Below are positions 19,738 to 35,896 of a stretch of 64,000 bases of DNA, piece by piece. A program made the translations under genes and the position numbers. This stretch comes from Clostridioides sp. ES-S-0054-01 (GTDB lineage: Bacteria; Bacillota; Clostridia; Peptostreptococcales; Peptostreptococcaceae): the NCBI GenBank assembly GCA_021561035.1, contig CP067346.1, forward strand, positions 279,001 to 343,000, read 5' to 3'. The notes under the pieces are model-generated. The model worked only from the letters and a program-made list of their open reading frames with translations, was not told where the DNA came from and made no database searches. Numbering within the stretch: position 1 is the stretch's first letter; each line of letters starts with the position of its first letter.

Positions 19738-19773
19738 ATTTTTCTAATAAATATGCATTGGAAGGAAAAATTT

Positions 19774-21912
19774 ATGTTATTAAGTATAGTAATGATGGTA
19801 AAAAATGAAGAAAAAATGTTAAATAAAACATTAGAAGCATTAAAACAACTAAGAGATTCCATAGATAGTGAACTTATAATAATGGATACTGGGTCAACTG
19901 ATAATACTGTTAAGATAGCCAAAGAACATACTGAGAAAGTTTATTTTCATAAATGGGATAATGATTTTTCTAGTATGAGAAATAAGGCGATTTCATATTC
20001 TAAAGGCCAATGGGTATTTATACTAGATGCTGATGAAGTATTAACAGATTGTACCAAAATGATAGAATTTTTTAATAGTGATTTGTGTAAGAAATTTAAG
20101 TCAGCATCAATACAGTTAAAAAATATCTATTCTTTAGAAAAAAGCTCTTATGGCTATTCTTCTGTATTAAGGTTATTTAGAAATGACAACTTTAAATTTG
20201 TAGGTAGAGTTCATGAACAACCATTATATAAAGATCCTGTATTTCATAATATTGCAGAGTTTGACCACTATGGATATATATTTGAAGATGAAGAATTTAG
20301 GATACAAAAAGTTAAAAGAAACGAAGAACTTCTATTACAACAGTTAGAAGAAGATAAAGATAATCCATATGTTAATTATCAACTTGGAAAGAATTTTATT
20401 ATATTAGAAAAATATCATGATGCACTATTTTATTTGGAAAGAAGTAACAATTTGTATAAAAGTTATGACTTTGTTCCAGGATATGTGCTTACTAGTTTAG
20501 CAAAAATATATTTATATTTAGGAAAACATAAAAAGTGTGAGAAATTATGTTTAAAGTATATAAATAAAGATATGAATAATATTGATATATATTATTATTT
20601 GGCACAAGCAGAAGTTAGTTTAGGGAAATATGAAAATAGTATAGATTCATATAAAAGATTTATTTATTTAGTTGATAATTATGAAGTAAGTACTCAAGCA
20701 AATAGTTTATTTTCAGATACTGATGCAGTAAGTTTTAAAGATATTGCAACTATTACATTAATAAAAATTTATTATAAGTTAGAAAAATATGATTTAGTAA
20801 TAAAAGAGTTTAAAAATATTGAGGATAAAAAGAAAATGAAAGATGTGTACTTTAGTCTTTTTATGTCCCTATATAAGCTTGATATATTTGAAAATATTCT
20901 TGATTACTATAATGATTTACCAATATCTCCAGTAGAAAAAAAATACTTTTATGAAAGTATAGAAATATTTATACAAAATATTCGAGAATGTGAAAAAAAT
21001 AGTATATATAAAATTTTGTGCTCAATGGATGGAAACTATGGGAGATTTAACAAAATAAGGTTAGATAGGAATCTATCTTTAGATGAATGCAAAAACATAC
21101 TTGAGAGTGAGAATACATTTATTTATGCTCCACTTATAATTATAGCTCATGAAAATGATATAAATTTGTTAGATATATTTTATAATATGGACTATGTTTG
21201 GATAGAGAGATATATGCAATATAGTGTTAATTATGATAAACGTTTCATATTGAAATTATATAAATATGTACTAAAACAACCAAATACTTTTGATATTAAT
21301 AAAATAAAAGTATATAGAGTATTTGTAAAGGTCGTTTTAGAAAATAATATTTTAGATGAAAAGAAATATAAAGAACTATTTTATATTTATATGATGTATT
21401 CTTATCAATATATAAAAAATATATACACTAACTTTAATAATTATGAGATAATAAAATATATAAATGGAGATGTTGAAAGATTTGTTTTAAAACTAAAAAT
21501 TTTACAAGATATAAAAAATGATAATAAAATAAGTTACATAGGAGATTTGAAACAGTTATTATATGAATATCCATACTGTAATAAAATAATTGAATTACTT
21601 ATAAAAGATTTTGAAAAGGAGCTCAACACAACAAAAGAATTTAATGTTTTAAAAAAAGATTTTCTTATAAATATAGAAAATATAATAAATTGTGGAGATA
21701 TAAAAAATGCAAAATCTATGATTGGTGAGTATTTAGAACTTTTTGATGAGGAGTCTGAAATTTTAAATATGAATGGAATAATTAATATGATGGAAGGCAA
21801 TTATGAAGAGGCAGATTTTATGTTTAAAAAAGCATATTCACTAAGCCTAGATAATGAGGACATCATATTTAACATTAAATATCTTAGAGAACTCAACTTA
21901 AACTATAAATAG
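19774..21912 (+). CDS. GT2 glycosyltransferase with TPR region, probable flagellin glycosyltransferase
   Basis: A large cytosolic enzyme of 712 residues. Its N-terminal GT-A domain (about 1-230) starts LSIVMMVKNEEKMLNKTLEALK and has GSTDNT and the metal-binding DADE (about residues 90-93). From about 230 to 370 lie TPR-like helical pairs; the rest is helical with no family I recognise. Position right after fliC matches the enzyme that adds the first sugar to flagellin Ser/Thr in other C. difficile strains, so that role is inferred. I chose ATG 19774 because GGAAGGA lies 8 bases upstream. An upstream in-frame ATG near 19708 lies at the fliC hairpin. Confidence 0.82.
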   Translation: MLLSIVMMVKNEEKMLNKTLEALKQLRDSIDSELIIMDTGSTDNTVKIAKEHTEKVYFHKWDNDFSSMRNKAISYSKGQWVFILDADEVLTDCTKMIEFFNSDLCKKFKSASIQLKNIYSLEKSSYGYSSVLRLFRNDNFKFVGRVHEQPLYKDPVFHNIAEFDHYGYIFEDEEFRIQKVKRNEELLLQQLEEDKDNPYVNYQLGKNFIILEKYHDALFYLERSNNLYKSYDFVPGYVLTSLAKIYLYLGKHKKCEKLCLKYINKDMNNIDIYYYLAQAEVSLGKYENSIDSYKRFIYLVDNYEVSTQANSLFSDTDAVSFKDIATITLIKIYYKLEKYDLVIKEFKNIEDKKKMKDVYFSLFMSLYKLDIFENILDYYNDLPISPVEKKYFYESIEIFIQNIRECEKNSIYKILCSMDGNYGRFNKIRLDRNLSLDECKNILESENTFIYAPLIIIAHENDINLLDIFYNMDYVWIERYMQYSVNYDKRFILKLYKYVLKQPNTFDINKIKVYRVFVKVVLENNILDEKKYKELFYIYMMYSYQYIKNIYTNFNNYEIIKYINGDVERFVLKLKILQDIKNDNKISYIGDLKQLLYEYPYCNKIIELLIKDFEKELNTTKEFNVLKKDFLINIENIINCGDIKNAKSMIGEYLELFDEESEILNMNGIINMMEGNYEEADFMFKKAYSLSLDNEDIIFNIKYLRELNLNYK

Positions 21913-22167: not shown

Positions 22168-22367
22168 TACTATATGGAGGCAAAGGTGGATATAATGGAT
22201 ATTTAGCAGATTTACGAAATGTGGATTCATTTAAGGGAAAGATAGAAATTATATCAAAACTATCTGCTTATGAATTGGAGCGTTTAAAATTAAATGCTAC
22301 AAAATCAGTGGATGATTTTTCTATTGAAAAAGTTATAGAGAGAATGAGATTAACCTTGGATACTTAA
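22167..22367 (+). pseudogene. C-terminal remnant, probably of a GT4-type glycosyltransferase
   Basis: An open frame without a start codon begins after a stop at 22164 and ends at TAA 22365. It encodes about 66 residues, including ELERLKLNATKSVDDFSIEKV near its end. This ending, alanine followed by FS-x-EKV about 10-15 residues before the terminus, is what many GT4 glycosyltransferases show. The upstream part contains stops in this frame. I read it as what is left of a deleted glycosyltransferase gene, with moderate certainty. Confidence 0.5.
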
Positions 22368-22394
22368 TTAATAATAAAAGTAGGTGTAAATAAT

Positions 22395-24854
22395 ATGATT
22401 ATAGATATAGTTCTATCATATGTAGAACATATTGGTAAGTTGGAAGAAAATATAGCTGTTCTAAGTAAAATTCTAACAAGTAGAGGTCATAAAACTCGTA
22501 TATTCTTGGAATCTGAAATAAAATATCTAGAATGGTCAAAGAACTTTCAAGAATGTCATTTTTTTTCTTCAGATAGACTTGGTGAATTTGAGAAAGCTTT
22601 AGAATATACAAAATTAGTTGATATTTTAGGGATACCAGATATTATACTTGCTACTGGAACAGCATTACAAAGTTTAATTTGTAGGTTAGCTATAATGCAC
22701 TTAGAGGAAGATAAACCTTCAATTATATCACTTATATATGATAAATCAGGACAATATGCTGATATAAAATATATAAAATACAGTGATGCTCATATTGCTA
22801 TATCAAATGATGTTAGAAGAGTAATAAATAGTATAGACAAAGATTCTCCTACATATTTTATTGAAAAGTTAACCGAGCTTGGTGAAGAAAGCAAGATTGA
22901 TAATTTTGAGAATATGTTTTTAAGGTATTATGGAACTCCAAATAAAATAATGAATAGTATAGAGGAGTATTTAATTTCTAATAATCTAGAAGAAGCTTTA
23001 AATGCTGTTTGTTTTTATGACAGTAGATTTTATAGAAATGTAGATTTTATTAATTTAAAATCTATTTTAGCTATACAAATGGAAGAGTATGAAATAGCTA
23101 TAAGGAATTTGGAACAAGCAGTAATATTACTAAAAGAAGAAAATTTAGATATATATTATAATTTAGCATATGCATATGAAAAAAATAAAGATTTTGATAA
23201 ATCTATAGATATGTACAAGCAGATAATGAAGAGTGTAGATGAAGATGAACAAGCACAGCTTTTTAATATACTTGAGGATATATATAAGAAAAGAGAATTA
23301 GAATTTGATAACTACTATAAGAATGAAAATTTAATATATAAAAATAAATATGGAACTACACTTATAGAAGATACTTTTTATAAGGATACACCAAATTACC
23401 CAGAAAATATATATGAAGGAAGAAATACTTTAAGTAAACTAATGACAGAAGAGTATCCATTAGTAAGTATTTATGTTTTGGCATATAACAATTTAGAGAA
23501 ATATACCAAAGGATGTATTGAAAGTATTTTAAGATACACAGAAGATATAAATTATGAACTAATACTAGTTGATAATGGATCAAGTGATGGAACATATGAA
23601 TATTTTAAATCAATAAAACATTCAAATAAAAAAATAATAAGAATAACTAAAAATCTTGGTGCAGCATATTCAGGTCCACTTATATTTAAAGAAGCTATGG
23701 GAAAATATTTAGTTGCTATTGCAAATGATATATTAGTTACAAAAAATTGGCTTTCAAATATGTTAAAATGTGCTGAATCTGATATTAGAATAGGAATGGT
23801 TAATCCAGTATTAGATTTTGTGAGCAATTTACAATCAATTGATTTAAAATATGATAATTTAGAAGATATGCAAAAAAAAGCAGAAAAGTATAACATATCA
23901 GATCCAACTAAGTGGCATGAAAGGCTAAGATTAATTACATTAGGAACTTTATTTAGAAAAGAATGTTTAGATATTATGGGTTATGTAGACTATGGATTTA
24001 TTCATCATTATACAGATGATGATTTAACATTTAGAGTAAGAAGAGCAGGTTATAAAGCAATACTTTGTAAAGATACATTTATAAGTCATAGAGGTGGAGA
24101 ATCAGATAAAGGTATAGAAGTTGAATTCAATGGAATATACAAAGGCAAAAACTTTTTTGAAGATAAATACTATGGAATAAGCACAGAAGATGCTTCAAAT
24201 TATGAACCAACTATGATCTCATTTATAGAAGCTGATAAATTAGATAACAAAATATATAATGTTTTAGGTATAGATACTCTTTGTGGAACTCCTATATTAG
24301 AAGTAAAGAACAAGTTAAGAGAAGGTAATATTTTCAAAACTAAACTATCTGCATTTTCTCAGGAAGCTAAATATTGGATAGATTTAAAAACTATATGTGA
24401 TGATGTAATAGTTGATAGAGTAGAATATATTGATGAATATTACGAAAATAAAAAATTTGATTATGTTATAGTTGGGAGAGAATTGAATTTATATAAAGAT
24501 CCATATAAATTATTATCTTCATTAAGTAAATTTATTGATGAAAACGGAAGTATAATCTTAAAGTTAAAAAATAATTATGATATAAAGTCGCTATTACATA
24601 TTTTAAATATTGAACTTGATTTTGAAAAACAAAATATACAAGCTATGGATTTGAACATCTTAAATAATAAATTAAAAGACATAGATTTATGTATAAAAAA
24701 TATAAAAGCAGAAATGCATTATATTGAAAAAGAAGGTATGGAGCTGATAGATTCGGTTTTAGAAAAGTTTAAAATACAAGAAGAAAATTTTAGTCAGATG
24801 TATATAAATAACTATGTAATGGAGTTAAAAAAATCTAAGCAGGTTCTGCAATAA
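22395..24854 (+). CDS. Multidomain glycosyltransferase: GT-B-like N-terminus, TPR, GT2 domain, methyltransferase-like C-terminus
   Basis: An 819-residue cytosolic protein. Residues 1-180 resemble the N-terminal half of a GT-B enzyme (HIGKLEENIAVLSKILTSRG, then a PDIILATGTALQS strand-loop). About 215-310 are TPR-like (two clear repeats: ..ILAIQMEEYEIAIRNLEQA.. and ..LAYAYEKNKDFDKSIDMYKQ..). About 355-590 form a complete GT2 domain with SIYVLAYNNLEKY, VDNGSSDGTYEY and a later HHYTDDDLTFRVRRAGY. The last 200 residues look like a methyltransferase fold with FDYVIVGRELNLYKDP but no clear AdoMet-binding glycine motif. It probably extends the flagellin glycan. Confidence 0.8.
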   Translation: MIIDIVLSYVEHIGKLEENIAVLSKILTSRGHKTRIFLESEIKYLEWSKNFQECHFFSSDRLGEFEKALEYTKLVDILGIPDIILATGTALQSLICRLAIMHLEEDKPSIISLIYDKSGQYADIKYIKYSDAHIAISNDVRRVINSIDKDSPTYFIEKLTELGEESKIDNFENMFLRYYGTPNKIMNSIEEYLISNNLEEALNAVCFYDSRFYRNVDFINLKSILAIQMEEYEIAIRNLEQAVILLKEENLDIYYNLAYAYEKNKDFDKSIDMYKQIMKSVDEDEQAQLFNILEDIYKKRELEFDNYYKNENLIYKNKYGTTLIEDTFYKDTPNYPENIYEGRNTLSKLMTEEYPLVSIYVLAYNNLEKYTKGCIESILRYTEDINYELILVDNGSSDGTYEYFKSIKHSNKKIIRITKNLGAAYSGPLIFKEAMGKYLVAIANDILVTKNWLSNMLKCAESDIRIGMVNPVLDFVSNLQSIDLKYDNLEDMQKKAEKYNISDPTKWHERLRLITLGTLFRKECLDIMGYVDYGFIHHYTDDDLTFRVRRAGYKAILCKDTFISHRGGESDKGIEVEFNGIYKGKNFFEDKYYGISTEDASNYEPTMISFIEADKLDNKIYNVLGIDTLCGTPILEVKNKLREGNIFKTKLSAFSQEAKYWIDLKTICDDVIVDRVEYIDEYYENKKFDYVIVGRELNLYKDPYKLLSSLSKFIDENGSIILKLKNNYDIKSLLHILNIELDFEKQNIQAMDLNILNNKLKDIDLCIKNIKAEMHYIEKEGMELIDSVLEKFKIQEENFSQMYINNYVMELKKSKQVLQ

Positions 24855-24941
24855 ATAGATTAGTTAGATATTTTATATTCTATTATAATTGAGTTTTAAT
24901 AATGAATTAAGAAAATATATAAACAAATGGAGGTATTATTT

Positions 24942-26057
24942 ATGAATAAAATACTAAAAGGTGAAGAATTTTCAACAGAATGGATAAAATTTATTGATTT
25001 AAATATAAATATGAATTATTTATGTAGTAAAAACATTGTTTTATTTGGTACTGGGTTTTATGGTAACATGGTTTTTAAATATTTAAAAAGTAAAGGTATT
25101 TCTGTATCTTACTATTGTGATAATGATGTAAATAAACAAGGAAAATATGTTGATGAAATCTTAGTAATCTCTCCAAATAAACTATATGAAATAAAAGAAA
25201 AAGTTATTTTTATTACAGCTAGACATTGCGTAAAAGAAATAAAAAAGCAGCTTGAAGATATGGATTTATATTCTATTTCATTTGATAATTTTATTTTAGG
25301 AGATAGATATGAAGAATATAAAAAAATATATGAAGAATATTTGGAAGATATAAAATCAAAAAAAACATATAAAAATATAATGAAGTGCATGGCTACTGGT
25401 GATACTAAATATTGTCAAGAAATTATGGAAAAGGATGCATTTTATTCATTACCAATATTTACTAATAATGTAAGTGATATTTTTGTAGATGCAGGTGCTT
25501 TTGTTGGAGATACTATTGAACAGTTTATTTGGAGTAATATTGGTCAATTTAAAAAGATATATGCATTTGAGCCAGGAGAGAGACAATTTAAAGCAATGAA
25601 ATTTAGAGTAGAAAGATTAATTCAAGAGTGGGGATTAGAAAATAACAAAATTGAATGTATAAATGCTGGATTAGGAGAGTTTAACAATAAAGTACAATAT
25701 CATATAAATGAAGACGTACCATCTAGTAATAATTTTTTACAAGCAAGTTCCAATAAAGTAGATAAAATGGTAGATGAAATAGTAGATGTTTATAGTTTAG
25801 ATAAATATTTGGATAAAGGAGAAGTAAACTTTATAAAAGCAGATATAGAAGGTTATGAATTAGAAATGTTAAAGGGAGGTGAATATATAATAAAACAATA
25901 TAAACCTAAATTAGCTATAAGTGTTTACCACAAACCAGATGATATTCTTGAAATAATTACATATTTGAAAAAAATAGTCCCTGAATATAAAATTGCTATC
26001 AGACAACATGCACCAACGTTAGTAGAGACTGTTTTATATTGTTGGATAGACAAATAA
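24942..26057 (+). CDS. FkbM-family methyltransferase with N-terminal Rossmann-like domain, first copy
   Basis: A 371-residue protein. N-terminal about 20-120: NIVLFGTGFYGNMVFKYLKSKG, a nucleotide-binding-like fold often fused to sugar-modifying enzymes. C-terminal about 175-370: FkbM-type AdoMet-dependent methyltransferase, with FVDAGAFVGDT (AdoMet loop), AFEPGERQF and FIKADIEGYELEMLKGG. FkbM enzymes methylate hydroxyl groups, commonly on sugars, so an O-methyl sugar in the glycan is likely. I chose ATG 24942 because GGAGG ends 8 bases upstream. It is 16 bases before a paralogue. Confidence 0.82.
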   Translation: MNKILKGEEFSTEWIKFIDLNINMNYLCSKNIVLFGTGFYGNMVFKYLKSKGISVSYYCDNDVNKQGKYVDEILVISPNKLYEIKEKVIFITARHCVKEIKKQLEDMDLYSISFDNFILGDRYEEYKKIYEEYLEDIKSKKTYKNIMKCMATGDTKYCQEIMEKDAFYSLPIFTNNVSDIFVDAGAFVGDTIEQFIWSNIGQFKKIYAFEPGERQFKAMKFRVERLIQEWGLENNKIECINAGLGEFNNKVQYHINEDVPSSNNFLQASSNKVDKMVDEIVDVYSLDKYLDKGEVNFIKADIEGYELEMLKGGEYIIKQYKPKLAISVYHKPDDILEIITYLKKIVPEYKIAIRQHAPTLVETVLYCWIDK

Positions 26058-26073
26058 TAAGAGGAGTATTTAT

Positions 26074-27258
26074 ATGTTAGATATTTTAGAAAATTTGAAT
26101 AATATAGATTTAATAGTTAATGAATTGTTAAATCATAAGCATTATAATAATGATTTAGAACATACCTTAAATAAAAGTGAGATTATATTATATGGGGCAG
26201 GGAATTTAGGCAATATGGCAAGTGAAGTATTAAGTAGCATAAATATTACACCAAGATATATTGTTGATAAAAATATTGATTTACATGGAAAGAAAATAAA
26301 TGGAATAAATATTATTAATCCAGATTATCTGAGTAGAGAAGATAAGGAAAATAGTATATTTGCTATATGTATTGTCAAGATTCAATATAATGAAATTAAA
26401 GAATATTTAGAAGAAATAGGATGTAAGAATATCTGTCACTTTTATGACATTACAGAAATGCTAAAAGATAAAGTGGGAGTTAGTAATGGATGGATTTTAG
26501 AAGACTTATCAGAAGTAGAAAAGAAGAAAATATCAAAAATTTATAACAAATTTGAAGATATCGAGTCAAAATTATATTATATACAATGGTTATGTTGGCG
26601 AATCTGTAAGAAAGAAATCAAATTTAAGAATTTAGATATAAATACAGAAAATAAGTTTTTTATAGATGAAATTATGAGTGTTTTGAATGAAAATGAAGTT
26701 TACATAGATTGTGGAGCTTATACGGGAAATACATTGAGTCAATTTATAGAAAAAGTAAATGGCAAATTTAATAAGATAATTGCTTTTGAACCAAATTTAG
26801 AAAGTTATCAAAATTTACAAGAAATAACTAGAGACCTTAATACTATTTATAATAATAAAATAAACATTTTTAAATATGGAGTTGGAGAAACAAAGTATAT
26901 TGGATTATTGAGAAATAATCTAGGATTAGCAAGTAAATTTGTTAATCTAGCAAGTGAAAATTTTCAAGAGGAAGTTGAGATTGTTAACTTAGATGAATTT
27001 CTAATAAATTTGGATCCTACATTTATAAAAGTACATGTAGAAGGAATGGAACTAGATGTTTTAAAAGGGAGCATGGAAATAATATGTAAAATGAGACCAA
27101 TACTAGTAATTACAACATATCATAATAGTGATGGTGTATATAAAATTCCAGATTTATTAATAAATAACTTAAATGACTATTCGTTTTATTTTAGATTACA
27201 TGGATACTGTGGTACACAAAGTGTATTATATGCTATCCCTAATGAAAGAAAAAAGTAA
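26074..27258 (+). CDS. FkbM-family methyltransferase with N-terminal Rossmann-like domain, second copy
   Basis: A 394-residue paralogue of the preceding gene with the same architecture. N-terminal EIILYGAGNLGNMASEVLSS, C-terminal FkbM domain with YIDCGAYTGNTLSQF, AFEPNLESYQN and FIKVHVEGMELDVLKG. In the last motif D/E-IEG is replaced by HVEG; the Glu-Gly is kept. The two copies have diverged widely, so they probably act on different positions or sugars. It ends 16 bases before the radical SAM gene; AAGGAGAAG for that gene overlaps its stop. Confidence 0.8.
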   Translation: MLDILENLNNIDLIVNELLNHKHYNNDLEHTLNKSEIILYGAGNLGNMASEVLSSINITPRYIVDKNIDLHGKKINGINIINPDYLSREDKENSIFAICIVKIQYNEIKEYLEEIGCKNICHFYDITEMLKDKVGVSNGWILEDLSEVEKKKISKIYNKFEDIESKLYYIQWLCWRICKKEIKFKNLDINTENKFFIDEIMSVLNENEVYIDCGAYTGNTLSQFIEKVNGKFNKIIAFEPNLESYQNLQEITRDLNTIYNNKINIFKYGVGETKYIGLLRNNLGLASKFVNLASENFQEEVEIVNLDEFLINLDPTFIKVHVEGMELDVLKGSMEIICKMRPILVITTYHNSDGVYKIPDLLINNLNDYSFYFRLHGYCGTQSVLYAIPNERKK

Positions 27259-27274
27259 AGGAGAAGTTTATAAA

Positions 27275-28300
27275 ATGAAAGCAAAAAAAGTTTCAAGAAT
27301 CAGAACAGAAAATAGAACAGCTTTACAAGATGTGATTCCACTAGAAACTCCATTTCATATTTTTTTAGATCCTTCAGCAGCTTGCAATTTTAAGTGTAAA
27401 TTTTGTTTTAATAGAGATAAAAGCAAAACATTTCATAAAATAATGGAATATGAATTATTTGAAAAAATTATAAGTGATTTAAAATTATTTCCAGATAAGT
27501 TAAAAGTTTTAAGATTATATAAAGAAGGAGAGCCTTTACTTAATAAAAATCTACCTAAAATGATATATTATGCAAAGAAAAATGATGTATGTGAAAAAGT
27601 AGATTTTACAACAAATGGTTCATTATTAAGTATTGGGAAAAATAAAGAACTAATAGACTCAGGATTAGATGCTATTATCATATCTGTACAAGGAATTAAT
27701 GAAAAACAATATTATGAAACGTCTGGAATAAAAATAGATTTTGATGAGTATGTAAAAAATATAAAAAATTTATATAAAAATAAAGAAAATTGTAGAGTAC
27801 ATATAAAAACAACAGATACTAATGTATCAGGATTAAATGAAAAAAAGTTTTATGATATATTTGGGGATATTTGTGATGAAATATCAATTGACAAAGTTAC
27901 ACCAATATGGCCAGATTTAGAAATAGACAATTCTAAGGAAGATTTTGAGTATGGTATATATGGTAATAAAATAGATAATATCCATATCTGCCCATATATA
28001 TTTTATTCTTTAACAATAAATTCTGATGGTAGTGTTAGTTCTTGTTTTTTAGATTGGAAACATTCAAATATATTAGGCGATGTAAATAAAGATTCTTTTT
28101 TCAAAATTTGGAATAGTGAAGAAGTTTTTAATATTAGAAAAGCCCATTTAAAGGGAAATATAGATAATTATTCTATATGTAAAAATTGTGGTCAATTAAA
28201 ATATGGAATGGCAGATAATATAGATGACTATTCTGAAGAAATACTTTTAAATCTGGAGAAAACATCATATAAGTTTAAACTGGAGAATTTAAATGTATAA
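27275..28300 (+). CDS. Radical SAM/SPASM-type enzyme, first copy
   Basis: A 341-residue iron-sulfur enzyme. The radical SAM cluster motif is Cys37-x3-Cys41-x2-Cys44 (CNFKCKFC), followed by a TIM-barrel-like body (LYKEGEPLLN, VDFTTNGSLLS). The C-terminal part has the SPASM-like cysteines CFLDWKHSN and CKNCG. The reaction cannot be told from sequence; relatives in surface-polysaccharide loci may dehydrogenate, epimerise or otherwise modify a sugar or an attached amino acid. ATG 27275 is chosen because AAAGGAGAAG precedes it; an upstream frame extends into the FkbM gene without a ribosome site. It overlaps the next gene by 8 bases. Confidence 0.82.
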   Translation: MKAKKVSRIRTENRTALQDVIPLETPFHIFLDPSAACNFKCKFCFNRDKSKTFHKIMEYELFEKIISDLKLFPDKLKVLRLYKEGEPLLNKNLPKMIYYAKKNDVCEKVDFTTNGSLLSIGKNKELIDSGLDAIIISVQGINEKQYYETSGIKIDFDEYVKNIKNLYKNKENCRVHIKTTDTNVSGLNEKKFYDIFGDICDEISIDKVTPIWPDLEIDNSKEDFEYGIYGNKIDNIHICPYIFYSLTINSDGSVSSCFLDWKHSNILGDVNKDSFFKIWNSEEVFNIRKAHLKGNIDNYSICKNCGQLKYGMADNIDDYSEEILLNLEKTSYKFKLENLNV

Positions 28301-29618
28301 TATTTTGCATATAACAACGCATTTAGGGGGTGGTGTTGGAAAAGTTTTAGCAAATGTTTGTAAATATTCTGCCACTAACACTAAAGGAAATATTTATAAA
28401 CATAAAATAATTCTATTAGAAGAGCCACAAAAAAAAAGTTTTTTGAATATATGTATTGAAAAGGGTATTGAAGTAATTGTTTCAGATAGATTATCTATAA
28501 TATCAAATGAAATAAAAAAATCTGATATAGTTCAATTAGAATGGTGGCATCATCCTAAATTTGCAGGTTTTTTAAATAATTTTCCTAATATTGATACACG
28601 GTTAGTAATTTGGAGTCATATATCAGGTTGTAATTATCCTAATATACCTTTTGAATTTATAAAAATACCTGATAAATTTATATTTACATCTGAGTATTCT
28701 TATGAAAATCCTCAATGGTCTGAAACTGAAAAAAAATATGCAAGAAAAAATACGACAGTTATAAACAGTTCTGGAGGATTTGATGACTTTAATAACATAG
28801 AAAAAAGTAAACATGATGGATTTAATATTGGATATATAGGAACTCTAAATTATAGTAAATTAAATCCGAAATTTGCTAATTATTATAATAGTATAGATGT
28901 TGATGTTTCCAAATTTATAATGATTGGTGATAGTGAATATGTTAGTGAAATTAGGAAAAATATATCTAAATTAAAAGTATATAAAAAAATTGAATTTAAA
29001 AATTATACTGATAATGTTGCAGAAGAAATGTCTAAATTTGATATATTTTCATACTTATTAAATAAAAATCATTTTGGAACTACAGAAAACGTATTATTAG
29101 AAGCAATGTATATGGGTTTACCCGTAATTTCATTAAATCAATGTGCTGAAAAATATCTAATAAAAAATATGGAGACTGGCATATTAGTAAATAATTTAGA
29201 TGAGTATAAAAATTCTGTAAAATATATTTTTGAAAATCCTAGCGAAAGAAAAAGACTTGGAGAAAATGCCAAAAGATATGTTCAAAATGAATTTAGCGTA
29301 GATAATACAGTAAATAAATTAAATTGTGTATATGATGAAGTTATGAAAAATTCTAAAAGAAAATATAGCTTTAATGATGTTTTTGGTAAATATCCATATG
29401 AGTGGTTCTTATCATGTTTAGGAGATAAGAAAAGACTATTTTATGGGTATGAAAATTTAAATGATTATATAAAAGAAATAGAAGAGGAGATGTATATTTT
29501 AAAAGAAAAAAATAAAAGTTCTATAAGACAATTTATTAAATATTATCCAAATGATAGATATTTAAACTATTTGAATAAGTTTGTAGATAAAATTATTTGT
29601 TTAAGTAAACTTGTATGA
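28293..29618 (+). CDS. GT4-type glycosyltransferase
   Basis: A 441-residue GT-B enzyme. It starts NILHITTHLGGGVGKVLANVC with a glycine-rich acceptor-side loop. The C-terminal half has NIGYIGTLNYSKL, then FGTTENVLLEAMYMGLPVISL, the donor-binding E-x7-E-like region of family GT4. The GTs between two radical SAM genes suggests these three act on the same residue. The last 100 residues (after about 340) are an unusual Tyr/Lys-rich helical tail not needed for GT4 function. It overlaps the gene before it, with coupled translation. Confidence 0.82.
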   Translation: MYNILHITTHLGGGVGKVLANVCKYSATNTKGNIYKHKIILLEEPQKKSFLNICIEKGIEVIVSDRLSIISNEIKKSDIVQLEWWHHPKFAGFLNNFPNIDTRLVIWSHISGCNYPNIPFEFIKIPDKFIFTSEYSYENPQWSETEKKYARKNTTVINSSGGFDDFNNIEKSKHDGFNIGYIGTLNYSKLNPKFANYYNSIDVDVSKFIMIGDSEYVSEIRKNISKLKVYKKIEFKNYTDNVAEEMSKFDIFSYLLNKNHFGTTENVLLEAMYMGLPVISLNQCAEKYLIKNMETGILVNNLDEYKNSVKYIFENPSERKRLGENAKRYVQNEFSVDNTVNKLNCVYDEVMKNSKRKYSFNDVFGKYPYEWFLSCLGDKKRLFYGYENLNDYIKEIEEEMYILKEKNKSSIRQFIKYYPNDRYLNYLNKFVDKIICLSKLV

Positions 29619-29637
29619 AGGGAGTAAAAGTTTAATT

Positions 29638-30642
29638 ATGATAGCAAAAATTGAACCAGGTTATGGTCTAGAAAGAGTGAAATTGAGTGAAGTTATTCCT
29701 TTAGATGCACCATTTACATTAATCATATCTCCATCAACAGTATGTAACTTTAAATGTATATACTGTGCACATTCATTAAGTAATGGAGAACTTGAGAAGA
29801 AGGGTTTTAAAGCATCAATTATGAAATGGGATACATTTATAGAAATAATTAATCAAGCTAAAGAGTTTAAGAGGAAATTTAAAGTAGTAAGTTTTATAGG
29901 TACTGGAGAACCAACATGTAATAAAAGATTACCTGATATGATTAAATATGTTAAAGAAAGTGGAATAGCAGAAAGAGTAGAAATTATAACAAATGGAGCA
30001 TTATTGGATGAAAAATTAATACTATCAATTATAAATTCTGGTTTAGATAAAATAAGAATTTCTATCCAAGGTTTATCTGAAGAAATGTATAAAAAAACTT
30101 GTAATACAAGGATAAATTTCAATGATTTTGTAAAGAATATGAAATTTTTATATGATAATAAAAAGGATTGCGAAATATGTATTAAAATAGCTGATTTAGC
30201 ATTGGATAAATATGAAGAAAAAAACTTCTATAATATTTTTGGCGATATTTGCGATAAAATATTTGTCGAAAATATTAGACCTGTTTTTGATGGAGTAAAT
30301 TATAGTATGATTTTGAGAGATACTGAAGATATTAATGCATATGGAGAAAAACATGATAAAATAACAGTTTGCTCTCAAGGATTTTTTACTTTTGTTGTTT
30401 GGCCAAATGGAGATGTCTATCCATGTTGTTCATTAGAAAATCCATCTGATTTAGGAAATATACATAAAAACACCCTTTTAGAAATTTGGAATGGAGAGAA
30501 AAGGAGAAATTTTTTATTGATGCAACTCAATGGAAACAGATTTTTTAATAATGTATGTAAAAAATGTGGAGCAATAGATTGTGTTTCAAAACCAGAAGAT
30601 GAGTTAGATAAATATGCAGAAAAAATAAAAAAAAGGATATAA
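29638..30642 (+). CDS. Radical SAM/SPASM-type enzyme, second copy
   Basis: A 334-residue paralogue of the enzyme at 27275. Cluster motif Cys36-x3-Cys40-x2-Cys43 (CNFKCIYC), the barrel segments FIGTGEPTCNKRLPDM and EIITNGALLDEKL, and SPASM-type cysteines in VYPCCSLENPSDLGN and CKKCGAIDC. Both copies share a leading V/I-IPL-[ED]-x-PF segment before the motif, showing common origin. I chose ATG 29638; GAAGGGAG lies 13 bases upstream, a little far, and a TTG at 29611 in frame is an alternative. The substrate is unknown. Confidence 0.82.
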   Translation: MIAKIEPGYGLERVKLSEVIPLDAPFTLIISPSTVCNFKCIYCAHSLSNGELEKKGFKASIMKWDTFIEIINQAKEFKRKFKVVSFIGTGEPTCNKRLPDMIKYVKESGIAERVEIITNGALLDEKLILSIINSGLDKIRISIQGLSEEMYKKTCNTRINFNDFVKNMKFLYDNKKDCEICIKIADLALDKYEEKNFYNIFGDICDKIFVENIRPVFDGVNYSMILRDTEDINAYGEKHDKITVCSQGFFTFVVWPNGDVYPCCSLENPSDLGNIHKNTLLEIWNGEKRRNFLLMQLNGNRFFNNVCKKCGAIDCVSKPEDELDKYAEKIKKRI

Positions 30643-30648
30643 TTGCAT

Positions 30649-31572
30649 ATGTATAAAGAAAAAATTTTATTAACAGGAGCAACTGGGTATATAGGATCAT
30701 TTTTAGCAAAAAAACTTTATATGTTAAATTATGATGTTCATATTCTCGTTAGAGAAAGTTCTAAATTAGATTCAATATCAGAGATAGAAAAAAATATAAG
30801 TCTATATGTATTTAATGGAGATACAATAGAATTGAATAATATATTAAAAAATATTAAACCTGATATTGTTATAAATTTAGCTTCTTTGTATTTAGGAAGC
30901 CATGCTTCAAACCAACTTATAGATTTAATTAATAGTAATGTAGTATTTCCTACACAATTAATAGAAGCTTCTATCAATGCAAAAGTTAATTGTTTTATAA
31001 ACACAGGCACTCATTGGCAAAATTATAATGATTGTAATTATAATCCTGTTAACTTATATGCAGCTACTAAAGAAGCATTTGAATCAATTTCAAAGTATTA
31101 TATTGAGGTATCAAATATGAGAATGATAACTTTGAAATTGATAGATACATATGGTCCATATGATTTTAGACCTAAAGTTATTAATTTATTAAAAAAAATT
31201 GCAATAAGTGGAGAAAATTTGGAAATGTCAGGCGGAGAACAAGAATTAGGATTAGTTTATATTGATGATGTAATAAAAGCCTATTTAATTGCAATTGAGA
31301 CTATACAAAAACTAAAATCTAAAGAATACAAACAATTTTTAGTGTTGCCTAAAAAAATATATAAATTGAAAGAAGTTATAGAAATATTTCAATCTGTCAT
31401 TGGAAAGAAATTAAATATTGAATTGGGAAAATTACCTTATAAAGATAGAGAAATGATGAAAGTGTATACGAATGGAGAAAACATATTGAAAAATGTATCT
31501 ACAATGGATTTGTATGAAGGAATAAGTCTTATGATGAATATTGAAAAAAATTCTGATGTGAAGAGAGGATAG
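30649..31572 (+). CDS. NAD-dependent epimerase/reductase, RfbJ/AltB-like
   Basis: An extended short-chain dehydrogenase of 307 residues. NAD(P) loop LLTGATGYIGSFLAKKL, then the active-site region TGTHWQNY and Tyr-x3-Lys in NLYAATKEAFE. This pattern resembles enzymes that finish CDP-linked deoxyhexoses (abequose or 6-deoxyaltrose type reductases), which fits the nearby CDP-glucose synthase; this assignment is inference. AAGGATAT lies upstream of ATG 30649. It is 2 bases before the RmlC-like gene. Confidence 0.72.
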   Translation: MYKEKILLTGATGYIGSFLAKKLYMLNYDVHILVRESSKLDSISEIEKNISLYVFNGDTIELNNILKNIKPDIVINLASLYLGSHASNQLIDLINSNVVFPTQLIEASINAKVNCFINTGTHWQNYNDCNYNPVNLYAATKEAFESISKYYIEVSNMRMITLKLIDTYGPYDFRPKVINLLKKIAISGENLEMSGGEQELGLVYIDDVIKAYLIAIETIQKLKSKEYKQFLVLPKKIYKLKEVIEIFQSVIGKKLNIELGKLPYKDREMMKVYTNGENILKNVSTMDLYEGISLMMNIEKNSDVKRG

Positions 31573-31574
31573 AT

Positions 31575-32120
31575 ATGTATAGGATAAAAAAAACTAATAT
31601 AGAAAATTGTATAGAAATTTTCCCAAATGTATTTGAAGATAATAGAGGTATAACAATTAAACCATATCATAGAAAATCTTTTGAAGATTTAGGAATTTTG
31701 GAAGAGTTTAAAGAAGATCTATTTGTAACCTCTAGTAAAGGAGTAATAAGAGGTTTACATTTTCAGAATGAACCATTTGAACAAAGTAAACTAATTTACT
31801 GTTTGAAAGGAAGCATACTAGATGTTGCTATTGATATCCGAAAAGGATCAAAAACATATGGACAAACTGTTAACTTTCATATAGATTCAAAAAAAAGAAA
31901 TATGGCATATATTCCCGCTGGATTTGCTCATGGATATGAAGTTTTAGAAGACGATACAATGGTTGTTTATAAATTATCTTCTATGTATGCGCCAGAATAT
32001 GAGGAAGGTATAAGATGGGATTCTGTAAATATAGATTGGAATACAAGTAATCCTATTTTATCAGATAAAGATAAAAAATGGCAGACTTTTCTTGAATATA
32101 CAAATAGTAGCTTAGAATAA
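31575..32120 (+). CDS. RmlC-like nucleotide-sugar 3(5)-epimerase
   Basis: A 181-residue cupin of the dTDP-4-dehydrorhamnose 3,5-epimerase family. It shows VIRGLHFQNEPFEQSKLIYCLKGSILDVAIDIRKGS with the catalytic His in the RGLH motif, then IPAGFAHGYEVLEDD. In pathways with RfbF such enzymes epimerise CDP-4-keto-6-deoxyglucose (AltA, Yersinia 6-deoxy-L-altrose). No rmlA or rmlB is in the window, so rhamnose synthesis here is not supported. It is co-located with the reductase and RfbF. Confidence 0.83.
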   Translation: MYRIKKTNIENCIEIFPNVFEDNRGITIKPYHRKSFEDLGILEEFKEDLFVTSSKGVIRGLHFQNEPFEQSKLIYCLKGSILDVAIDIRKGSKTYGQTVNFHIDSKKRNMAYIPAGFAHGYEVLEDDTMVVYKLSSMYAPEYEEGIRWDSVNIDWNTSNPILSDKDKKWQTFLEYTNSSLE

Positions 32121-32130
32121 GGAGTTTAAT

Positions 32131-32904
32131 ATGAAAGCAATAATTTTGGCAGGTGGATATGGTAGTAGGTTAGGAGATATAACAAATGTTGTTCCTAAAC
32201 CTATGATAGATATTGGTGGAAAACCAATATTATGGCATATAATGAAAATTTATTCATATTATGGCATAAATGATTTTATAATATGTTTAGGTTATAAAGC
32301 AGATGTCATAAAAGATTATTTTTTACATTATGATTTTAAAAATAATGACTTTACTATTGAAATTGGTAATGGAAATATTGAGTTTCTTAATACTAATGAT
32401 GAAAAAAATTGGAAAGTGACATTAATTGATACTGGTATAAGTTCAGAAAAAGGAGCAAGGCTTAAAAAGATTGAAAAATACTTAGAAGATGACATAAATC
32501 TATTGACTTATGGAGATGGTTTAGCAAATATAAATGTAAAAGAATTGATAGGTTTTCATAATAGTATGGGAAAATTGTTGACCATATCAGGTGTAAGACC
32601 TCCAGCTAGATTTGGAGAATTAGTAGCTGATGGAAATGTACTAGAATCATTTGAAGAAAAATCACAGACATCAAAAGGATTGATAAATGGGGGTTTTATG
32701 GTGTTTAATAAAAAACTGTTAGAATTTCTTACAGAAGATGATAATTGTGATTTAGAATATGGATTATTTGAAGATTTAGCTAAAAATAAAGAAATAGCAG
32801 TATATAAGCATGAAGGATTATGGGCATGTATGGATAATGAAAGAGACATGAACAATCTCAATATGCTTTGGAAGAATAATAATGCATTTTGGAGACTATG
32901 GTGA
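32131..32904 (+). CDS. rfbF: Glucose-1-phosphate cytidylyltransferase
   Basis: RfbF makes CDP-glucose from CTP and glucose-1-phosphate. The 257-residue protein starts MKAIILAGGYGSRLGDITN and continues PKPMIDIGGKPILWHIMKIYS, a nearly exact RfbF signature. It also has INGGFMVFNKKLLEFL and the Trp/Asp-rich C-terminal region. CDP-glucose normally goes to a 4,6-dehydratase (RfbG), but no gene with that enzyme's typical motifs is found next to it. AAGGAG precedes the ATG. Confidence 0.92.
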   Translation: MKAIILAGGYGSRLGDITNVVPKPMIDIGGKPILWHIMKIYSYYGINDFIICLGYKADVIKDYFLHYDFKNNDFTIEIGNGNIEFLNTNDEKNWKVTLIDTGISSEKGARLKKIEKYLEDDINLLTYGDGLANINVKELIGFHNSMGKLLTISGVRPPARFGELVADGNVLESFEEKSQTSKGLINGGFMVFNKKLLEFLTEDDNCDLEYGLFEDLAKNKEIAVYKHEGLWACMDNERDMNNLNMLWKNNNAFWRLW

Positions 32905-32952
32905 CAAATTTTGATTGTCTTTAAAGGATATATTAATAAAGGAGAGAATGAT

Positions 32953-34047
32953 ATGATATGTAAAACACTAAGGTATGATTTAGATTATACGTTCAATAAA
33001 TTATCTAGTGATGAAAAAGAAAAACTATGCAATTCTACAATCCTAATAACAGGTTTTGCTGGTTTTATAGGATATTATTTTATGAGGTTTTTTCAACATA
33101 ATAAAATGAAATTAAATCTAAAGAAAGTTATTGCAATTGATAACTTTATGTTAGGATGCCCAAAATGGGTAGAAGATTTTAAGGAAGATTCCATTTTTCA
33201 GATTGAGAAATTTGACATATCAAAAGATAATATTTCAGATATTAAAGATGCTGAAAATGTGGATTATGTTATTCATATGGCTTCAATTGCTTCTCCTACA
33301 TTTTATCGTAAGTTTCCAATTGAAACAATAGATGCAAATATTTGGGGATTAAGGTCTTTATTAGAATTTTATAAAGAAAAATTAATAAAGGGATTTTTAT
33401 TTTACTCTTCAAGTGAAGTTTATGGAAATCCTGATTCTAATAATATACCAACAACTGAAAATTACAATGGGAATGTTTCTATAACTGGACCAAGATCTTG
33501 TTATGATGAGTCAAAACGATTTGGAGAAACTATTTGTATGTTATTTAGTGAAAAATATAATATGCCAATCGGAGTTGTGAGACCATTTAATAATTATGGT
33601 CCAGGTATGAGAATTAGTGATAAACGTGTACCAGCTGATTTTGCAAAAGCAGTAAAAGAAAATAGAAACATTGAAATATTATCAAATGGATTACCAACGA
33701 GAACTTTTTGCTATATAGCTGATGCTGTAAATGGTTATCTGAAGATATTGCTTTATGGAAAATATGATTTTTTTAATATAGGAATTTCAAATCCAGAAAT
33801 ATCTATAGAAGAACTTGCAAATATTTATAAAGAAAATGGAGAAGAAGTATTTAAATATACAGGGAATATTACATATAATAAATCTAATGAGAAACACTAT
33901 TTGACTCATAATCCTCAACATAGATGTCCGAATATAGACAAAGCTAAAGTCCTACTAAATTATAATCCAGAAATAGATGTAAATATGGGTGTCAAGAGAT
34001 TTTTAAAATTTATTAAAGAAAGTGAGGAGTATGAATATTTATGGTAA
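32953..34047 (+). CDS. UDP-glucuronate decarboxylase-like epimerase/dehydratase family protein
   Basis: An extended short-chain dehydrogenase of 364 residues. NAD loop LITGFAGFIGYYFMRF; active site SSSEVYG (S152-S154, E155) and Y184-x3-K188 in RSCYDESKRFGE; NNYGPGMRISDKRV and TRTFCYIAD follow. RSCYDE-x-KR, the TSE-like site without Asp, and the R-V loop are UDP-xylose synthase features; 4,6-dehydratases would have TDE or TSDKCY. So it more likely makes a UDP-pentose from UDP-glucuronate, which the next gene would supply. ATG 32953 is chosen because GGAGAG lies 6 bases upstream. It overlaps ugd by 7 bases. Confidence 0.72.
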   Translation: MICKTLRYDLDYTFNKLSSDEKEKLCNSTILITGFAGFIGYYFMRFFQHNKMKLNLKKVIAIDNFMLGCPKWVEDFKEDSIFQIEKFDISKDNISDIKDAENVDYVIHMASIASPTFYRKFPIETIDANIWGLRSLLEFYKEKLIKGFLFYSSSEVYGNPDSNNIPTTENYNGNVSITGPRSCYDESKRFGETICMLFSEKYNMPIGVVRPFNNYGPGMRISDKRVPADFAKAVKENRNIEILSNGLPTRTFCYIADAVNGYLKILLYGKYDFFNIGISNPEISIEELANIYKENGEEVFKYTGNITYNKSNEKHYLTHNPQHRCPNIDKAKVLLNYNPEIDVNMGVKRFLKFIKESEEYEYLW

Positions 34048-35291
34048 CAGTTTTTGGTCTTGGTTTTGTTGGATTAACAACAGCATTAGGTTTTTCACAA
34101 ATGGGACATAAAGTTTATGGTATTGACATAAATTATGATCACAAAGAAATTATAAGAAGTGGGAAAGTGCCATTTATGGAACCTAATCTAGAGGACGTGT
34201 TAAAACAAACTCTCAATAAAAATTTTTTTGTTTCTGATAATTTAAAAATAGCTATGAAAAAAAGTGAGTATATATTTTTTTGTGTAGGAACACCTTATGG
34301 CAAAAATGGAGAGGCAGATTTAACTTACTTATATAATGCTTTAGAAGAGGCAATACTTTCAATAGATGATGATAAGTTTAGGACATTTATTATTAAGTCA
34401 ACTGTTCCACCATCTACGACATTAACAGAAATCAAACCATTCATTGAAAAAAAGAATCTAAATAATAATTGCAAAATTGGTGTTGCTAATAATCCTGAGT
34501 TTTTGAGGGAAGGTCACTGTTGGGAAGATTTTATTAAGGCAGATCGTATTGTTATTGGAGTTGATGATAAAAAGGTAGAGAAAAAGTTGTATAATTTATA
34601 TAAGACTGCAAATATTCCATTATATTTTGTTTCTTTGAATACAAGTGAATTTATTAAGTATTTGTCAAATTCATTTTTAGCTACTATGATTAGCTTCTCA
34701 AATGAAATGTCTATGATTGCAGATTATATTGGAGATATAGATATATCTAAGGCTTTTAATATATTTCATAAAGATAAGCGTTGGGATGGTTGTGAAATAG
34801 TTTCATATATGTATCCTGGCTGTGGATATGGTGGTTATTGTTTACCAAAGGATACAAATGCTCTTTATTCAATATCAAAGAAAAATGAATTTGATGCAAA
34901 TATACTATACAATGTTATTAAAATTAATGATGAGATGCCTAAATATATAGTAGATAAAATTGAAAAATCATTAACAAATAATAAGACTAAAATTGGTGTA
35001 TTAGGCTTATCTTTCAAACCAAATTCTAATGATGTCCGTGACACATCAAGTGCAAAAATAATTGATATTTTAATAAAAAGAGGGTATAAAGATATTTTAG
35101 TATATGATCCAGTGGCAAATGAAGAATTTCACAAACATTATAAATTTAATATAAATTATGCTAAATCAACGAAAGATTTGTTAGGATATGTTGATGTTAT
35201 AGTAATAGTAACTGCATGGGAAGAATTTAAAAATATTAATTTATATACTAAAAAACCTATTGTAGATTGTCGTTATATATTAAATAAATAA
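34041..35291 (+). CDS. ugd: UDP-glucose 6-dehydrogenase
   Basis: A 416-residue nucleotide-sugar dehydrogenase that oxidises UDP-glucose to UDP-glucuronate. NAD domain VFGLGFVGLTTALGF; the middle has VGTPYGKNGEADL, KSTVPPSTT and NPEFLREGHCWEDF. The catalytic Cys267 lies in GYGGYCLPKD, where Tyr replaces the usual Ser; the UDP-binding domain has GLSFKPNSNDVRDT. It overlaps the UXS-like gene, supporting a UDP-glucose to UDP-glucuronate to UDP-pentose route. It is the last gene before the early flagellar operon's control region. Confidence 0.83.
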   Translation: MVTVFGLGFVGLTTALGFSQMGHKVYGIDINYDHKEIIRSGKVPFMEPNLEDVLKQTLNKNFFVSDNLKIAMKKSEYIFFCVGTPYGKNGEADLTYLYNALEEAILSIDDDKFRTFIIKSTVPPSTTLTEIKPFIEKKNLNNNCKIGVANNPEFLREGHCWEDFIKADRIVIGVDDKKVEKKLYNLYKTANIPLYFVSLNTSEFIKYLSNSFLATMISFSNEMSMIADYIGDIDISKAFNIFHKDKRWDGCEIVSYMYPGCGYGGYCLPKDTNALYSISKKNEFDANILYNVIKINDEMPKYIVDKIEKSLTNNKTKIGVLGLSFKPNSNDVRDTSSAKIIDILIKRGYKDILVYDPVANEEFHKHYKFNINYAKSTKDLLGYVDVIVIVTAWEEFKNINLYTKKPIVDCRYILNK

Positions 35292-35758: not shown

Positions 35759-35775
35759 TAGATTAAAACTAAACA

Positions 35776-35853: not shown

Positions 35854-35896
35854 AAAAAGAATCCTAAGTATGCTGTATACGTAGGATGAGTCTAGG

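What the first reader, a model, noticed from the sequence alone, without database searches (positions are those of the whole stretch)
27275..30642. Two SPASM-type radical SAM enzymes around a GT4 glycosyltransferase in a flagellin-modification island
Seen: two paralogous radical SAM proteins (CNFKCKFC and CNFKCIYC clusters, extra cysteine clusters near the ends) with a GT4 gene overlapping the first. Known: the C. difficile flagellin pathways I am aware of (GlcNAc with methyl-phosphothreonine, type A; GlcNAc, rhamnoses and a taurine-containing peptidyl cap, type B) do not, as I recall, use such a pair. Inference: radical chemistry on a sugar, or on an amino acid linked to it, may be a new step of flagellin decoration. 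The GT would attach the modified residue. This is the best candidate for an undescribed system here.
Basis: partly seen in the sequence, partly recalled or inferred. Interest (0 to 1): 0.82.

Follow-up and report, generated by a model that had tools for sequence, protein, structure and literature searches.

The report
Radical-SAM enzymes in a flagellin-sugar island
A Clostridioides bacterium carries, inside the gene block that probably decorates its flagella with sugars, two related radical enzymes that may rewrite carbon-hydrogen bonds on those sugars; relatives of these enzymes recur, often three in a fixed order, in similar sugar gene blocks of other bacteria.

Summary
rSAM1 (27275-28300), a GT4 glycosyltransferase (28293-29618) and rSAM2 (29638-30642) lie in a co-directional island between fliC and flgB of a Clostridioides genome. 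Seven congeners carry type A-like (1), type B-like (4) or other (2) islands there. Both rSAMs belong to one family (81 full-length members in hand) with three SAM-cluster Cys and four Cys for one auxiliary cluster: twitch (BtrN-like), not full SPASM. BtrN is the best solved relative of the family profile (E 1e-26). In 38 family loci the neighbours are CDP-glucose synthase, RmlC-type epimerase, an SDR, FkbM methyltransferases, GT4 and, in 14, flagellar genes; these are nearly absent from 48 control loci. Clades A-B-C stand in that direct order in 17 of 38 loci, in four phyla, though outside Bacillota from metagenome bins only. rSAM2 is clade B, rSAM1 clade D. The GT4 occurs in 22 of 27 loci with A or D and in 0 of 11 without. 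Best reading: sugar-directed radical oxidoreductases or epimerases of flagellin glycan assembly, rSAM1 paired with the GT4. The reaction is inferred, not shown. Four searches of the held library found no description of it.

The parts
18818..19690 (+). fliC flagellin, likely acceptor of the glycan
   Evidence: 87-94% identical to FliC of 7 congeners
19774..21912 (+). GT1: family 2 glycosyltransferase with TPRs, first gene of the island (ORF opens at 19708; ATG 19774 fits the relative in L057)
   Evidence: Pfam Glycos_transf_2 8.1e-21; 59-67% identical protein after fliC in 7 of 7 congeners; start
22395..24854 (+). GT2: family 2 glycosyltransferase with TPR
24927..26057 (+). FkbM-family methyltransferase 1
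   Evidence: PF05050 and TIGR01444 above cut-off
26074..27258 (+). FkbM-family methyltransferase 2
   Evidence: PF05050 and TIGR01444 above cut-off
27275..28300 (+). rSAM1, twitch radical SAM protein, clade D
   Evidence: 73% identical to the L057 member
28293..29618 (+). GT4-type glycosyltransferase
   Evidence: PF00534 4.1e-18
29638..30642 (+). rSAM2, twitch radical SAM protein, clade B
30649..31572 (+). SDR1, NAD-dependent epimerase/dehydratase or reductase
   Evidence: PF01370 2.3e-31; no NCBIfam cut-off reached
31575..32120 (+). RmlC-type NDP-4-keto-sugar 3,5-epimerase
   Evidence: TIGR01221 179.3 bits, cut-off 155.75
32131..32904 (+). RfbF, glucose-1-phosphate cytidylyltransferase (CDP-glucose synthase)
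   Evidence: TIGR02623 318.3 bits, cut-off 300.25
32953..34047 (+). SDR2, UDP-glucuronate-decarboxylase-like SDR (ORF opens at 32911)
   Evidence: best solved relative UDP-glucuronate decarboxylase 1, 1.7e-41, residues 42-375 of 378; start
34041..35291 (+). nucleotide-sugar 6-dehydrogenase, UDP-glucose type likely
   Evidence: TIGR03026 375.2 bits, cut-off 189.8

Best explanation
rSAM1 and rSAM2 are BtrN-like twitch radical SAM enzymes that act on a sugar (free as NDP-sugar, or already attached to flagellin) during cytoplasmic assembly of a flagellin O-glycan. SAM is cleaved at the CxxxCxxC cluster; the 5'-deoxyadenosyl radical takes one H from a ring C-H; then either the four-Cys auxiliary cluster removes an electron, giving a ketone (BtrN type), or the radical is re-quenched from the other face, giving an epimer (HygY/NeoN type). 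GT1 and GT2 start and extend the chain; the GT4 transfers the sugar that rSAM1 makes or edits; the FkbM enzymes O-methylate it. rSAM2 acts on a second position or residue, perhaps in the CDP-glucose branch. SHOWN here: gene content, family membership, cysteine pattern, co-occurrence, clade structure. INFERRED: substrate class, that the reaction is oxidation or epimerisation, the pairing with GT4, flagellin as the target.
For: BtrN, which oxidises an aminocyclitol alcohol, is the best solved relative of the family profile (1.1e-26; radical core and twitch both aligned, four auxiliary Cys matched). PMC9012708 passages: the BtrN auxiliary cluster has four Cys ligands and BtrN does a two-electron oxidation. 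Seven Cys invariant in 81 of 81 (80 of 81 for one of them in a second alignment). Neighbours in 38 family loci / 48 control loci: FkbM 33/0, RfbF 26/1, RmlC 25/0, SDR1 25/0, RfbG 23/0, GT4 22/0, RfbH 16/1, any of fliC/fliD/fliS 14/0 (the window is one of the 38 and seeded most profiles). GT4 in 22 of 27 loci with clade A or D and 0 of 11 without (Fisher 3.6e-6, not corrected for kinship); clade D alone: 2 of 3. A-B-C directly in order in 17 of 38 loci, all three present in 21 of 38. Island order equals that of L057 gene by gene except rSAM2 and the last two genes.
Against: BtrN aligns in two pieces; the stretch between (profile 145-239), where substrate contacts may lie, does not align. The only non-ligand Cys found in over half of members (C164 of the 343-aa ORF) is Cys in 42 of 81 and not clade-true, so no epimerase H-donor can be named. 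One family member (L061, in-frame stop) has neighbours that do not read as a sugar locus (by eye), and L064 has neither RfbF nor a flagellar gene in view. 24 of 38 loci show no flagellar gene in view, and outside Bacillota only L079 does. All loci outside Bacillota are metagenome bins, where wrong binning is possible (titles).
Confidence: 0.55

Rival explanations
1. The rSAMs act on an amino acid or short peptide that caps the glycan (as the type B glycan carries a taurine-containing cap), and the GT4 or another enzyme joins it to the sugar.
For: PqqE and SuiB, two of the four SPASM/twitch enzymes treated in PMC9012708 (passages), work on peptides (substrates partly recalled). Clade-B members in L059, L083 and L085 lie beside AMP-binding ligases.
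Against: The 12 island ORFs, each scanned against Pfam or NCBIfam, hold no AMP ligase, ATP-grasp, FemAB or aminotransferase, whereas the type B-like island scanned (G006) has the last three. About 35 residues precede the SAM motif, too few for a RiPP recognition domain (domain size recalled).
Confidence: 0.15
2. rSAM-made keto sugar replaces the missing dehydratase: with no CDP-glucose 4,6-dehydratase found in the genome, rSAM2 oxidises CDP-glucose (or a product of it) and RmlC and SDR1 then epimerise and reduce it.
For: No close RfbG homologue in 8 of 8 genus genomes (best 31% identity, E 2.8e-24). Loci with clade B but neither A nor C lack RfbG in 6 of 6 and have RfbF in 5 of 6; among RfbF-positive loci RfbG is absent in 5 of 5 of these against 3 of 21 others (Fisher 8.5e-4). 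RmlC-type enzymes need a 4-keto sugar (recalled).
Against: Four of the six loci are one tree clade, so the count is close to one event. Only the window among the six has RmlC and SDR1. SDR2, a UDP-glucuronate-decarboxylase-like enzyme, would pass through a 4-keto pentose (recalled) and could be the source instead.
Confidence: 0.12
3. The rSAMs modify the flagellin polypeptide itself (for example Ser, Thr or Lys side chains).
For: 14 of 38 loci hold fliC, fliD or fliS.
Against: 24 of 38 family loci show no flagellar gene in view, including L064, which reads as a teichoic-acid-like locus (by eye). FkbM, RfbF, RmlC, SDR1 and GT4 accompany the family more often than flagellar genes do, though the view is only about 10 kb each way.
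Confidence: 0.08
4. The pair is a decayed or accidental passenger with no role in glycosylation.
For: Rare and patchy: close hits (E below 1e-50) in 5 of 297 genomes of the order and 6 of 391 of the class, own genome counted in both; none in 7 congeners.
Against: All seven Cys kept, tight gene packing with ribosome-binding-site-like sequences, and the company described above.
Confidence: 0.05

Closest known systems
BtrN, 2-deoxy-scyllo-inosamine dehydrogenase (PDB 4m7s, 4m7t)
   Same: Radical SAM core plus twitch domain; the four auxiliary Cys align with those of the family
   Different: Butirosin pathway; solved chains of 269-270 residues; the middle region does not align; not claimed as an orthologue
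HygY and NeoN radical SAM epimerases of aminoglycosides
   Same: Radical SAM enzymes acting on sugars of antibiotics; HygY is called a twitch epimerase in its title (seen in the reference list of PMC10991966; the paper is not held)
   Different: No sequence comparison could be made; a Cys H-donor (Cys249 in NeoN, PMC10991966 passages) has no invariant counterpart in this family
C. difficile flagellin locus type A
   Same: Same site after fliC and a 60% identical first GT in the type A-like congener G005
   Different: HAD protein, nucleotidyltransferase, methyltransferase and Glyphos_transf genes, no rSAM. CD0241 as phosphatase-like is from PMC10714395 passages; the other type A gene names are recalled
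C. difficile flagellin locus type B (CDR20291_0241-0247)
   Same: Same site, several family 2 GTs
   Different: FemAB, ATP-grasp, ornithine cyclodeaminase-like and FdtB-like genes (section 7 of PMC5207246; congener G006); no rSAM
CDP-3,6-dideoxyhexose (RfbF-RfbG-RfbH) pathways
   Same: RfbF above cut-off in the window; the related locus L057 has RfbG and RfbH above cut-off and an RfbF 75% identical to the window's
   Different: No RfbG or RfbH in the island, and only weak hits elsewhere in the genome; a 6-dehydrogenase and a decarboxylase-like SDR stand in their place
Radical SAM gene in the C. jejuni HS:19 capsule/methylation cluster (CjjRM3420_1449)
   Same: An rSAM gene listed beside a methyltransferase and near a putative glycosyltransferase (PMC8743553 passages)
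   Different: Capsule, not flagellin; sequence not compared here

Membership tests
Radical SAM superfamily | CxxxCxxC motif and Radical_SAM domain | tested here: met
   PF04055 1.2e-16 and 5.2e-21, above cut-off; three Cys invariant in 81 of 81
SPASM (two auxiliary clusters) | Full set of auxiliary Cys for two clusters | tested here: not met
   The Pfam SPASM profile matches, but only four auxiliary Cys are conserved
Twitch radical SAM, BtrN-like | Four Cys for one fully ligated auxiliary [4Fe-4S] cluster | tested here: met
   C254, C272, C316, C319 (343-aa ORF numbering) in 81 of 81 (C272 in 80 of 81 in a second alignment); aligned with BtrN. Met at sequence level only
Twitch radical SAM, BtrN-like | Oxidation of a sugar-like secondary alcohol | not testable with these tools
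   needs anaerobic enzymology
Named NCBIfam radical SAM families | Score above curated cut-off | tested here: not met
   Best: TIGR04317 93.6 and 82.8 bits against 380; NF033640 70.8 and 74.4 against 170 (best 25 families shown for each)
Cobalamin-dependent radical SAM methylases | B12-binding domain | tested here: not met
   No B12-binding hit in rSAM1 or rSAM2; separate B12-rSAM genes occur in relatives' loci
C. difficile type A flagellin island | CD0241-CD0244 type genes after the first GT | tested here: not met
   Absent in window; such genes present in congener G005
C. difficile type B flagellin island | FemAB, ATP-grasp, ornithine cyclodeaminase-like and DegT genes | tested here: not met
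   Absent in window; present in the one type B-like congener scanned (G006); same layout in four congeners
CDP-6-deoxyhexose pathway (RfbF + RfbG) | CDP-glucose 4,6-dehydratase | tested here: not met
   RfbF present; no close RfbG homologue in own genome nor in 8 of 8 genus genomes

The most novel reading that the evidence does not exclude
A radical SAM glycan-editing system: up to four kinds of paralogous twitch enzymes (A, B, C, D), often kept as an ordered cassette across phyla, each edit one C-H position of protein-bound or nucleotide-bound sugars (stereochemistry or oxidation state), so that flagellin and other surface glycans are rewritten by radical chemistry rather than only built from preformed NDP-sugars.
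Probability: 0.3. Interest if true: 0.85.

Novelty: new variant of a known kind. Interest (0 to 1): 0.62.

Why it matters
The radical SAM sugar enzymes that I know of come mostly from antibiotic pathways (recalled). A family kept as an ordered three-gene cassette in flagellin and surface-glycan islands of Bacillota, and by metagenome bins also of Pseudomonadota, Melainabacteria and Lentisphaerota, would place radical C-H editing in bacterial protein glycosylation, and would give Clostridioides a flagellin glycan type beyond A and B. It yields clear tests: a change of the flagellin glycan for each deleted rSAM, and a GT4-dependent substrate for rSAM1.

Tried and rejected
Rejected: full SPASM enzymes (only four auxiliary Cys); B12-dependent C-methylases (no B12 domain); the named NCBIfam rSAM families shown (all far under cut-off); the idea that an extra Cys marks epimerases by clade (C164 is Cys in 13 of 20 A, 22 of 28 B, 5 of 24 C, 0 of 4 D, 2 of 5 unplaced). 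A/C/D presence did not go with RfbG (Fisher 0.22). Promoter-like and terminator-like sites are no more than in shuffles (152 against 159; 2 against 2.1), so operon limits are not settled. A first census with a greedy ORF caller missed genes, for example a clade A gene in L077; a six-frame census replaced it.

Left out of the tree only: pieces under 320 aa or under 300 bits, among them one 326-aa protein of L091 at 212 bits, which is the one in-between score. Five tree rows on long branches are not placed in a clade but enter the census by best-scoring clade profile. The output was cut, so part of L077 to L079 was first seen.

Literature: joined flagellin or flagell with radical SAM and glycosylation terms; by their listings none treats rSAMs in flagellin islands (1, 9, 3 and 9 papers listed). 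Searches looked for Selenomonas flagellin glycans; the primary paper is not held. The Selenomonas relatives L077 and L078 hold A-B-C, but no glycan data could be read.
Full report
WHAT IS THERE. The window is part of a 3.93-Mb one-contig genome. A co-directional block from 19774 to 35291 lies between fliC and the flgB operon: GT1, GT2, two FkbM methyltransferases, rSAM1, GT4, rSAM2, SDR1, RmlC, RfbF, SDR2 and a nucleotide-sugar 6-dehydrogenase. The ORF block 19708-35291 is 24.7% G+C against 29.6% for flanking flagellar stretches. rSAM1 and rSAM2 are 38% identical. Starts at 27275 and 29638 fit ribosome-binding-site-like sequence.

THE GENUS. Eight genus genomes, own included, were searched with FliC and 8 of 8 have it. 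In 7 of 7 congeners a GT1 homologue follows fliC (59-67% identity), but the rest differs. G005 has a HAD protein, a nucleotidyltransferase, a methyltransferase and a Glyphos_transf protein, which fits the type A locus (CD0241 as phosphatase-like from PMC10714395 passages; the other type A names recalled). G001, G003, G006 and G007 share one layout by ORF order and size; the one scanned, G006, has FemAB, ATP-grasp, ornithine cyclodeaminase-like and DegT proteins, as section 7 of PMC5207246 describes for type B. G002, G004 and the window have other contents. So the genus is taken to be Clostridioides, and this island is neither type A nor type B. The species was not identified. No congener has a close homologue of rSAM2 (best 37% over about half the length, E 1.1e-12, in G004). 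That G004 gene lies in its own flagellin island with RfbF (82% identical), RmlC and SDR1, but it is a different rSAM: 62 bits against the family profile.

THE FAMILY. Searches of 297 genomes of the order with rSAM2 and of 391 of the class with rSAM1 gave close relatives (E below 1e-50) in 5 and 6 genomes, own genome counted in both. A pattern scan of named genome contigs gave 268 relatives, of which the best 80 were kept (79 loci): 31 are family loci (L067-L095, L099, L129), one of them, L082, a duplicate of L058; the other 48 hold distant rSAMs. Against a profile of 14 members, full-length members score 300 bits or more and other full-length rSAMs 155 or less, with one in between (L091 at 1717, 212 bits). 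Seven Cys are invariant in 81 of 81 full-length members, as are R22, P30, N46, G99, N128, S151 and W293 (343-aa ORF numbering); in a second alignment of the same 81 one auxiliary Cys is 80 of 81. Four auxiliary Cys mean one twitch cluster. Against solved structures the 81-member profile finds BtrN first (1.1e-26), then MoaA (4.8e-21); in BtrN the radical core and the twitch align, the four auxiliary Cys included, while the stretch between does not. PMC9012708 passages say that BtrN oxidises 2-deoxy-scyllo-inosamine, that its auxiliary cluster has four Cys ligands, and that MoaA's has an open iron site.

CLADES AND ORDER. A maximum-likelihood tree of the 81 rows, rooted at the midpoint for drawing only, gives groups I call A (20 rows, 99/90), B (28, 97/95), C (24, 99/95) and D (4, 100/99), with five rows on long branches left unplaced. 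rSAM2 is in B, rSAM1 in D with its 72%-identical relative in L057. A-B-C stand directly in that order in 17 of 38 loci; all three are present in 21 of 38. The 17 include isolates (Fusibacter as L058, Desulfosporosinus, two Selenomonas, Sporanaerobium, and Caloramator with broken reading frames) and metagenome bins; those of Lentisphaerota (1), Melainabacteria (2) and Pseudomonadota (4) are all bins (titles), so the reach across phyla rests on bins. Three paralogues that each stay in their own clade argue for three non-redundant steps.

COMPANY. A six-frame census with profiles compared 38 family loci with the 48 distant-rSAM loci of the same scan. Counts, family/control: FkbM 33/0, GT2-like 27/1, RfbF 26/1, RmlC 25/0, SDR1 25/0, RfbG 23/0, GT4 22/0, RfbH 16/1, any of fliC, fliD, fliS 14/0. 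Limits: the window is one of the 38 and seeded most profiles; the control is mostly marine Gammaproteobacteria by title and a weak match for taxonomy; loci reach about 10 kb each way or to contig ends, so family counts are lower bounds; several family loci are near relatives (two Sporomusa, two Ruminiclostridium bins, two pairs of Selenomonas). Of the 14 loci with flagellar genes, 13 are Bacillota or unnamed class-mates of the window and one is L079, an Azonexus bin. GT4 occurs in 22 of 27 loci with A or D and in 0 of 11 without (Fisher 3.6e-6, kinship not corrected); the five exceptions are L060 and L091 and three loci cut by contig ends (L080, L081, L084). For D alone it is 2 of 3 loci. This is the firmest functional hint: the rSAM1 kind and the GT4 work together. 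The rSAM-GT4-rSAM trio as such is in the window only (1 of 38).

COMPARISON WITH L057. In the same family, G086 has fliC-GT1-GT2-FkbM-FkbM-rSAM(D)-GT4-SDR1-RmlC-RfbF in the window's order at 47-75% protein identity, followed by RfbG and RfbH, both far above their cut-offs (511.3 against 278.45; 718.3 against 423). The window differs at two places: rSAM2 is present, and RfbG-RfbH are replaced by the decarboxylase-like SDR2 and the 6-dehydrogenase. Its genome shows only weak hits to RfbG (E 6.7e-13, part of another protein) and RfbH (E 2.7e-4). The five RfbF-positive loci with B but no A or C, the window among them, all lack RfbG, against 3 of 21 others; four of the five are one tree clade, so this is a lead only.

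HOW IT PROBABLY WORKS. GT1 and GT2 begin and extend an O-glycan on FliC (in type B, GT1 adds GlcNAc and GT2 extends; PMC5207246 passages). RfbF supplies CDP-glucose; the 6-dehydrogenase and SDR2 supply a uronate or pentose; RmlC and SDR1 epimerise and reduce a keto sugar; GT4 adds a residue; FkbM enzymes methylate; rSAM1 edits the GT4 residue or its donor, and rSAM2 edits a second position. The radical start and the single four-Cys cluster fit dehydrogenation as in BtrN or epimerisation as in HygY and NeoN (HygY known here by title only, NeoN from passages of PMC10991966). Which of the two, and on what, is not decided.

NOVELTY. Twitch rSAM sugar enzymes and flagellin glycan islands are both known kinds; their union in an ordered A-B-C cassette was not found in the held library by searches (listings read; passages of PMC8743553 read, which tell of an rSAM in a Campylobacter capsule cluster). 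The word 'radical' occurs 0 times in the main texts of PMC5207246 (type B), PMC6254364 (S-layer glycan) and PMC13317340 (Clostridium flagellar islands), and once, as 'radically', in PMC10714395 (type A). Most subscription papers are not held.

Noticed in passing
window 36014-36034 and 36189-36209: Two copies of the published C. difficile flagellar-switch repeat (0 and 1 mismatch, opposite strands, 154 nt apart; 0.17 matches expected by chance) between the c-di-GMP riboswitch and flgB, the layout of the invertible switch in PMC5386303 (passages).
   Followed up: partly
window 35766-35856: c-di-GMP-I riboswitch (77.7 bits) upstream of the flgB operon, as known in C. difficile (passages).
   Followed up: no
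L157 5998-7125 (congener G004): A different radical SAM/SPASM-profile protein in another congener's flagellin island, with RfbF, RmlC, SDR1 and a C-methyltransferase-like gene: a second recruitment of an rSAM to the same kind of island, again without a close RfbG homologue in the genome.
   Followed up: partly
L155 (congener G002): A further flagellin island with two DegT aminotransferases and several GT-like genes, unlike types A and B.
   Followed up: no
L067 17297-19072, L071 14855-16621, L072 12157-13956, L084 5271-7094: B12-binding radical SAM proteins (Pfam B12-binding plus Radical_SAM) near the family rSAMs, suggesting C-methylation of the glycan there.
   Followed up: partly
L059, L083, L085: A side branch of clade B sits with RfbF and AMP-binding ligases, without RfbG or GT4 in view: a different variant that may join an acid or amino acid to the sugar.
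   Followed up: partly
window 19709-19737: A 13-pair hairpin followed by T-rich sequence just after fliC, before GT1: possible attenuation between flagellin and the glycan genes; the scan total is no more than chance.
   Followed up: no
window 21913-22394: A long gap (482 nt) between GT1 and GT2 without an ORF of 70 aa or more lying inside it.
   Followed up: no
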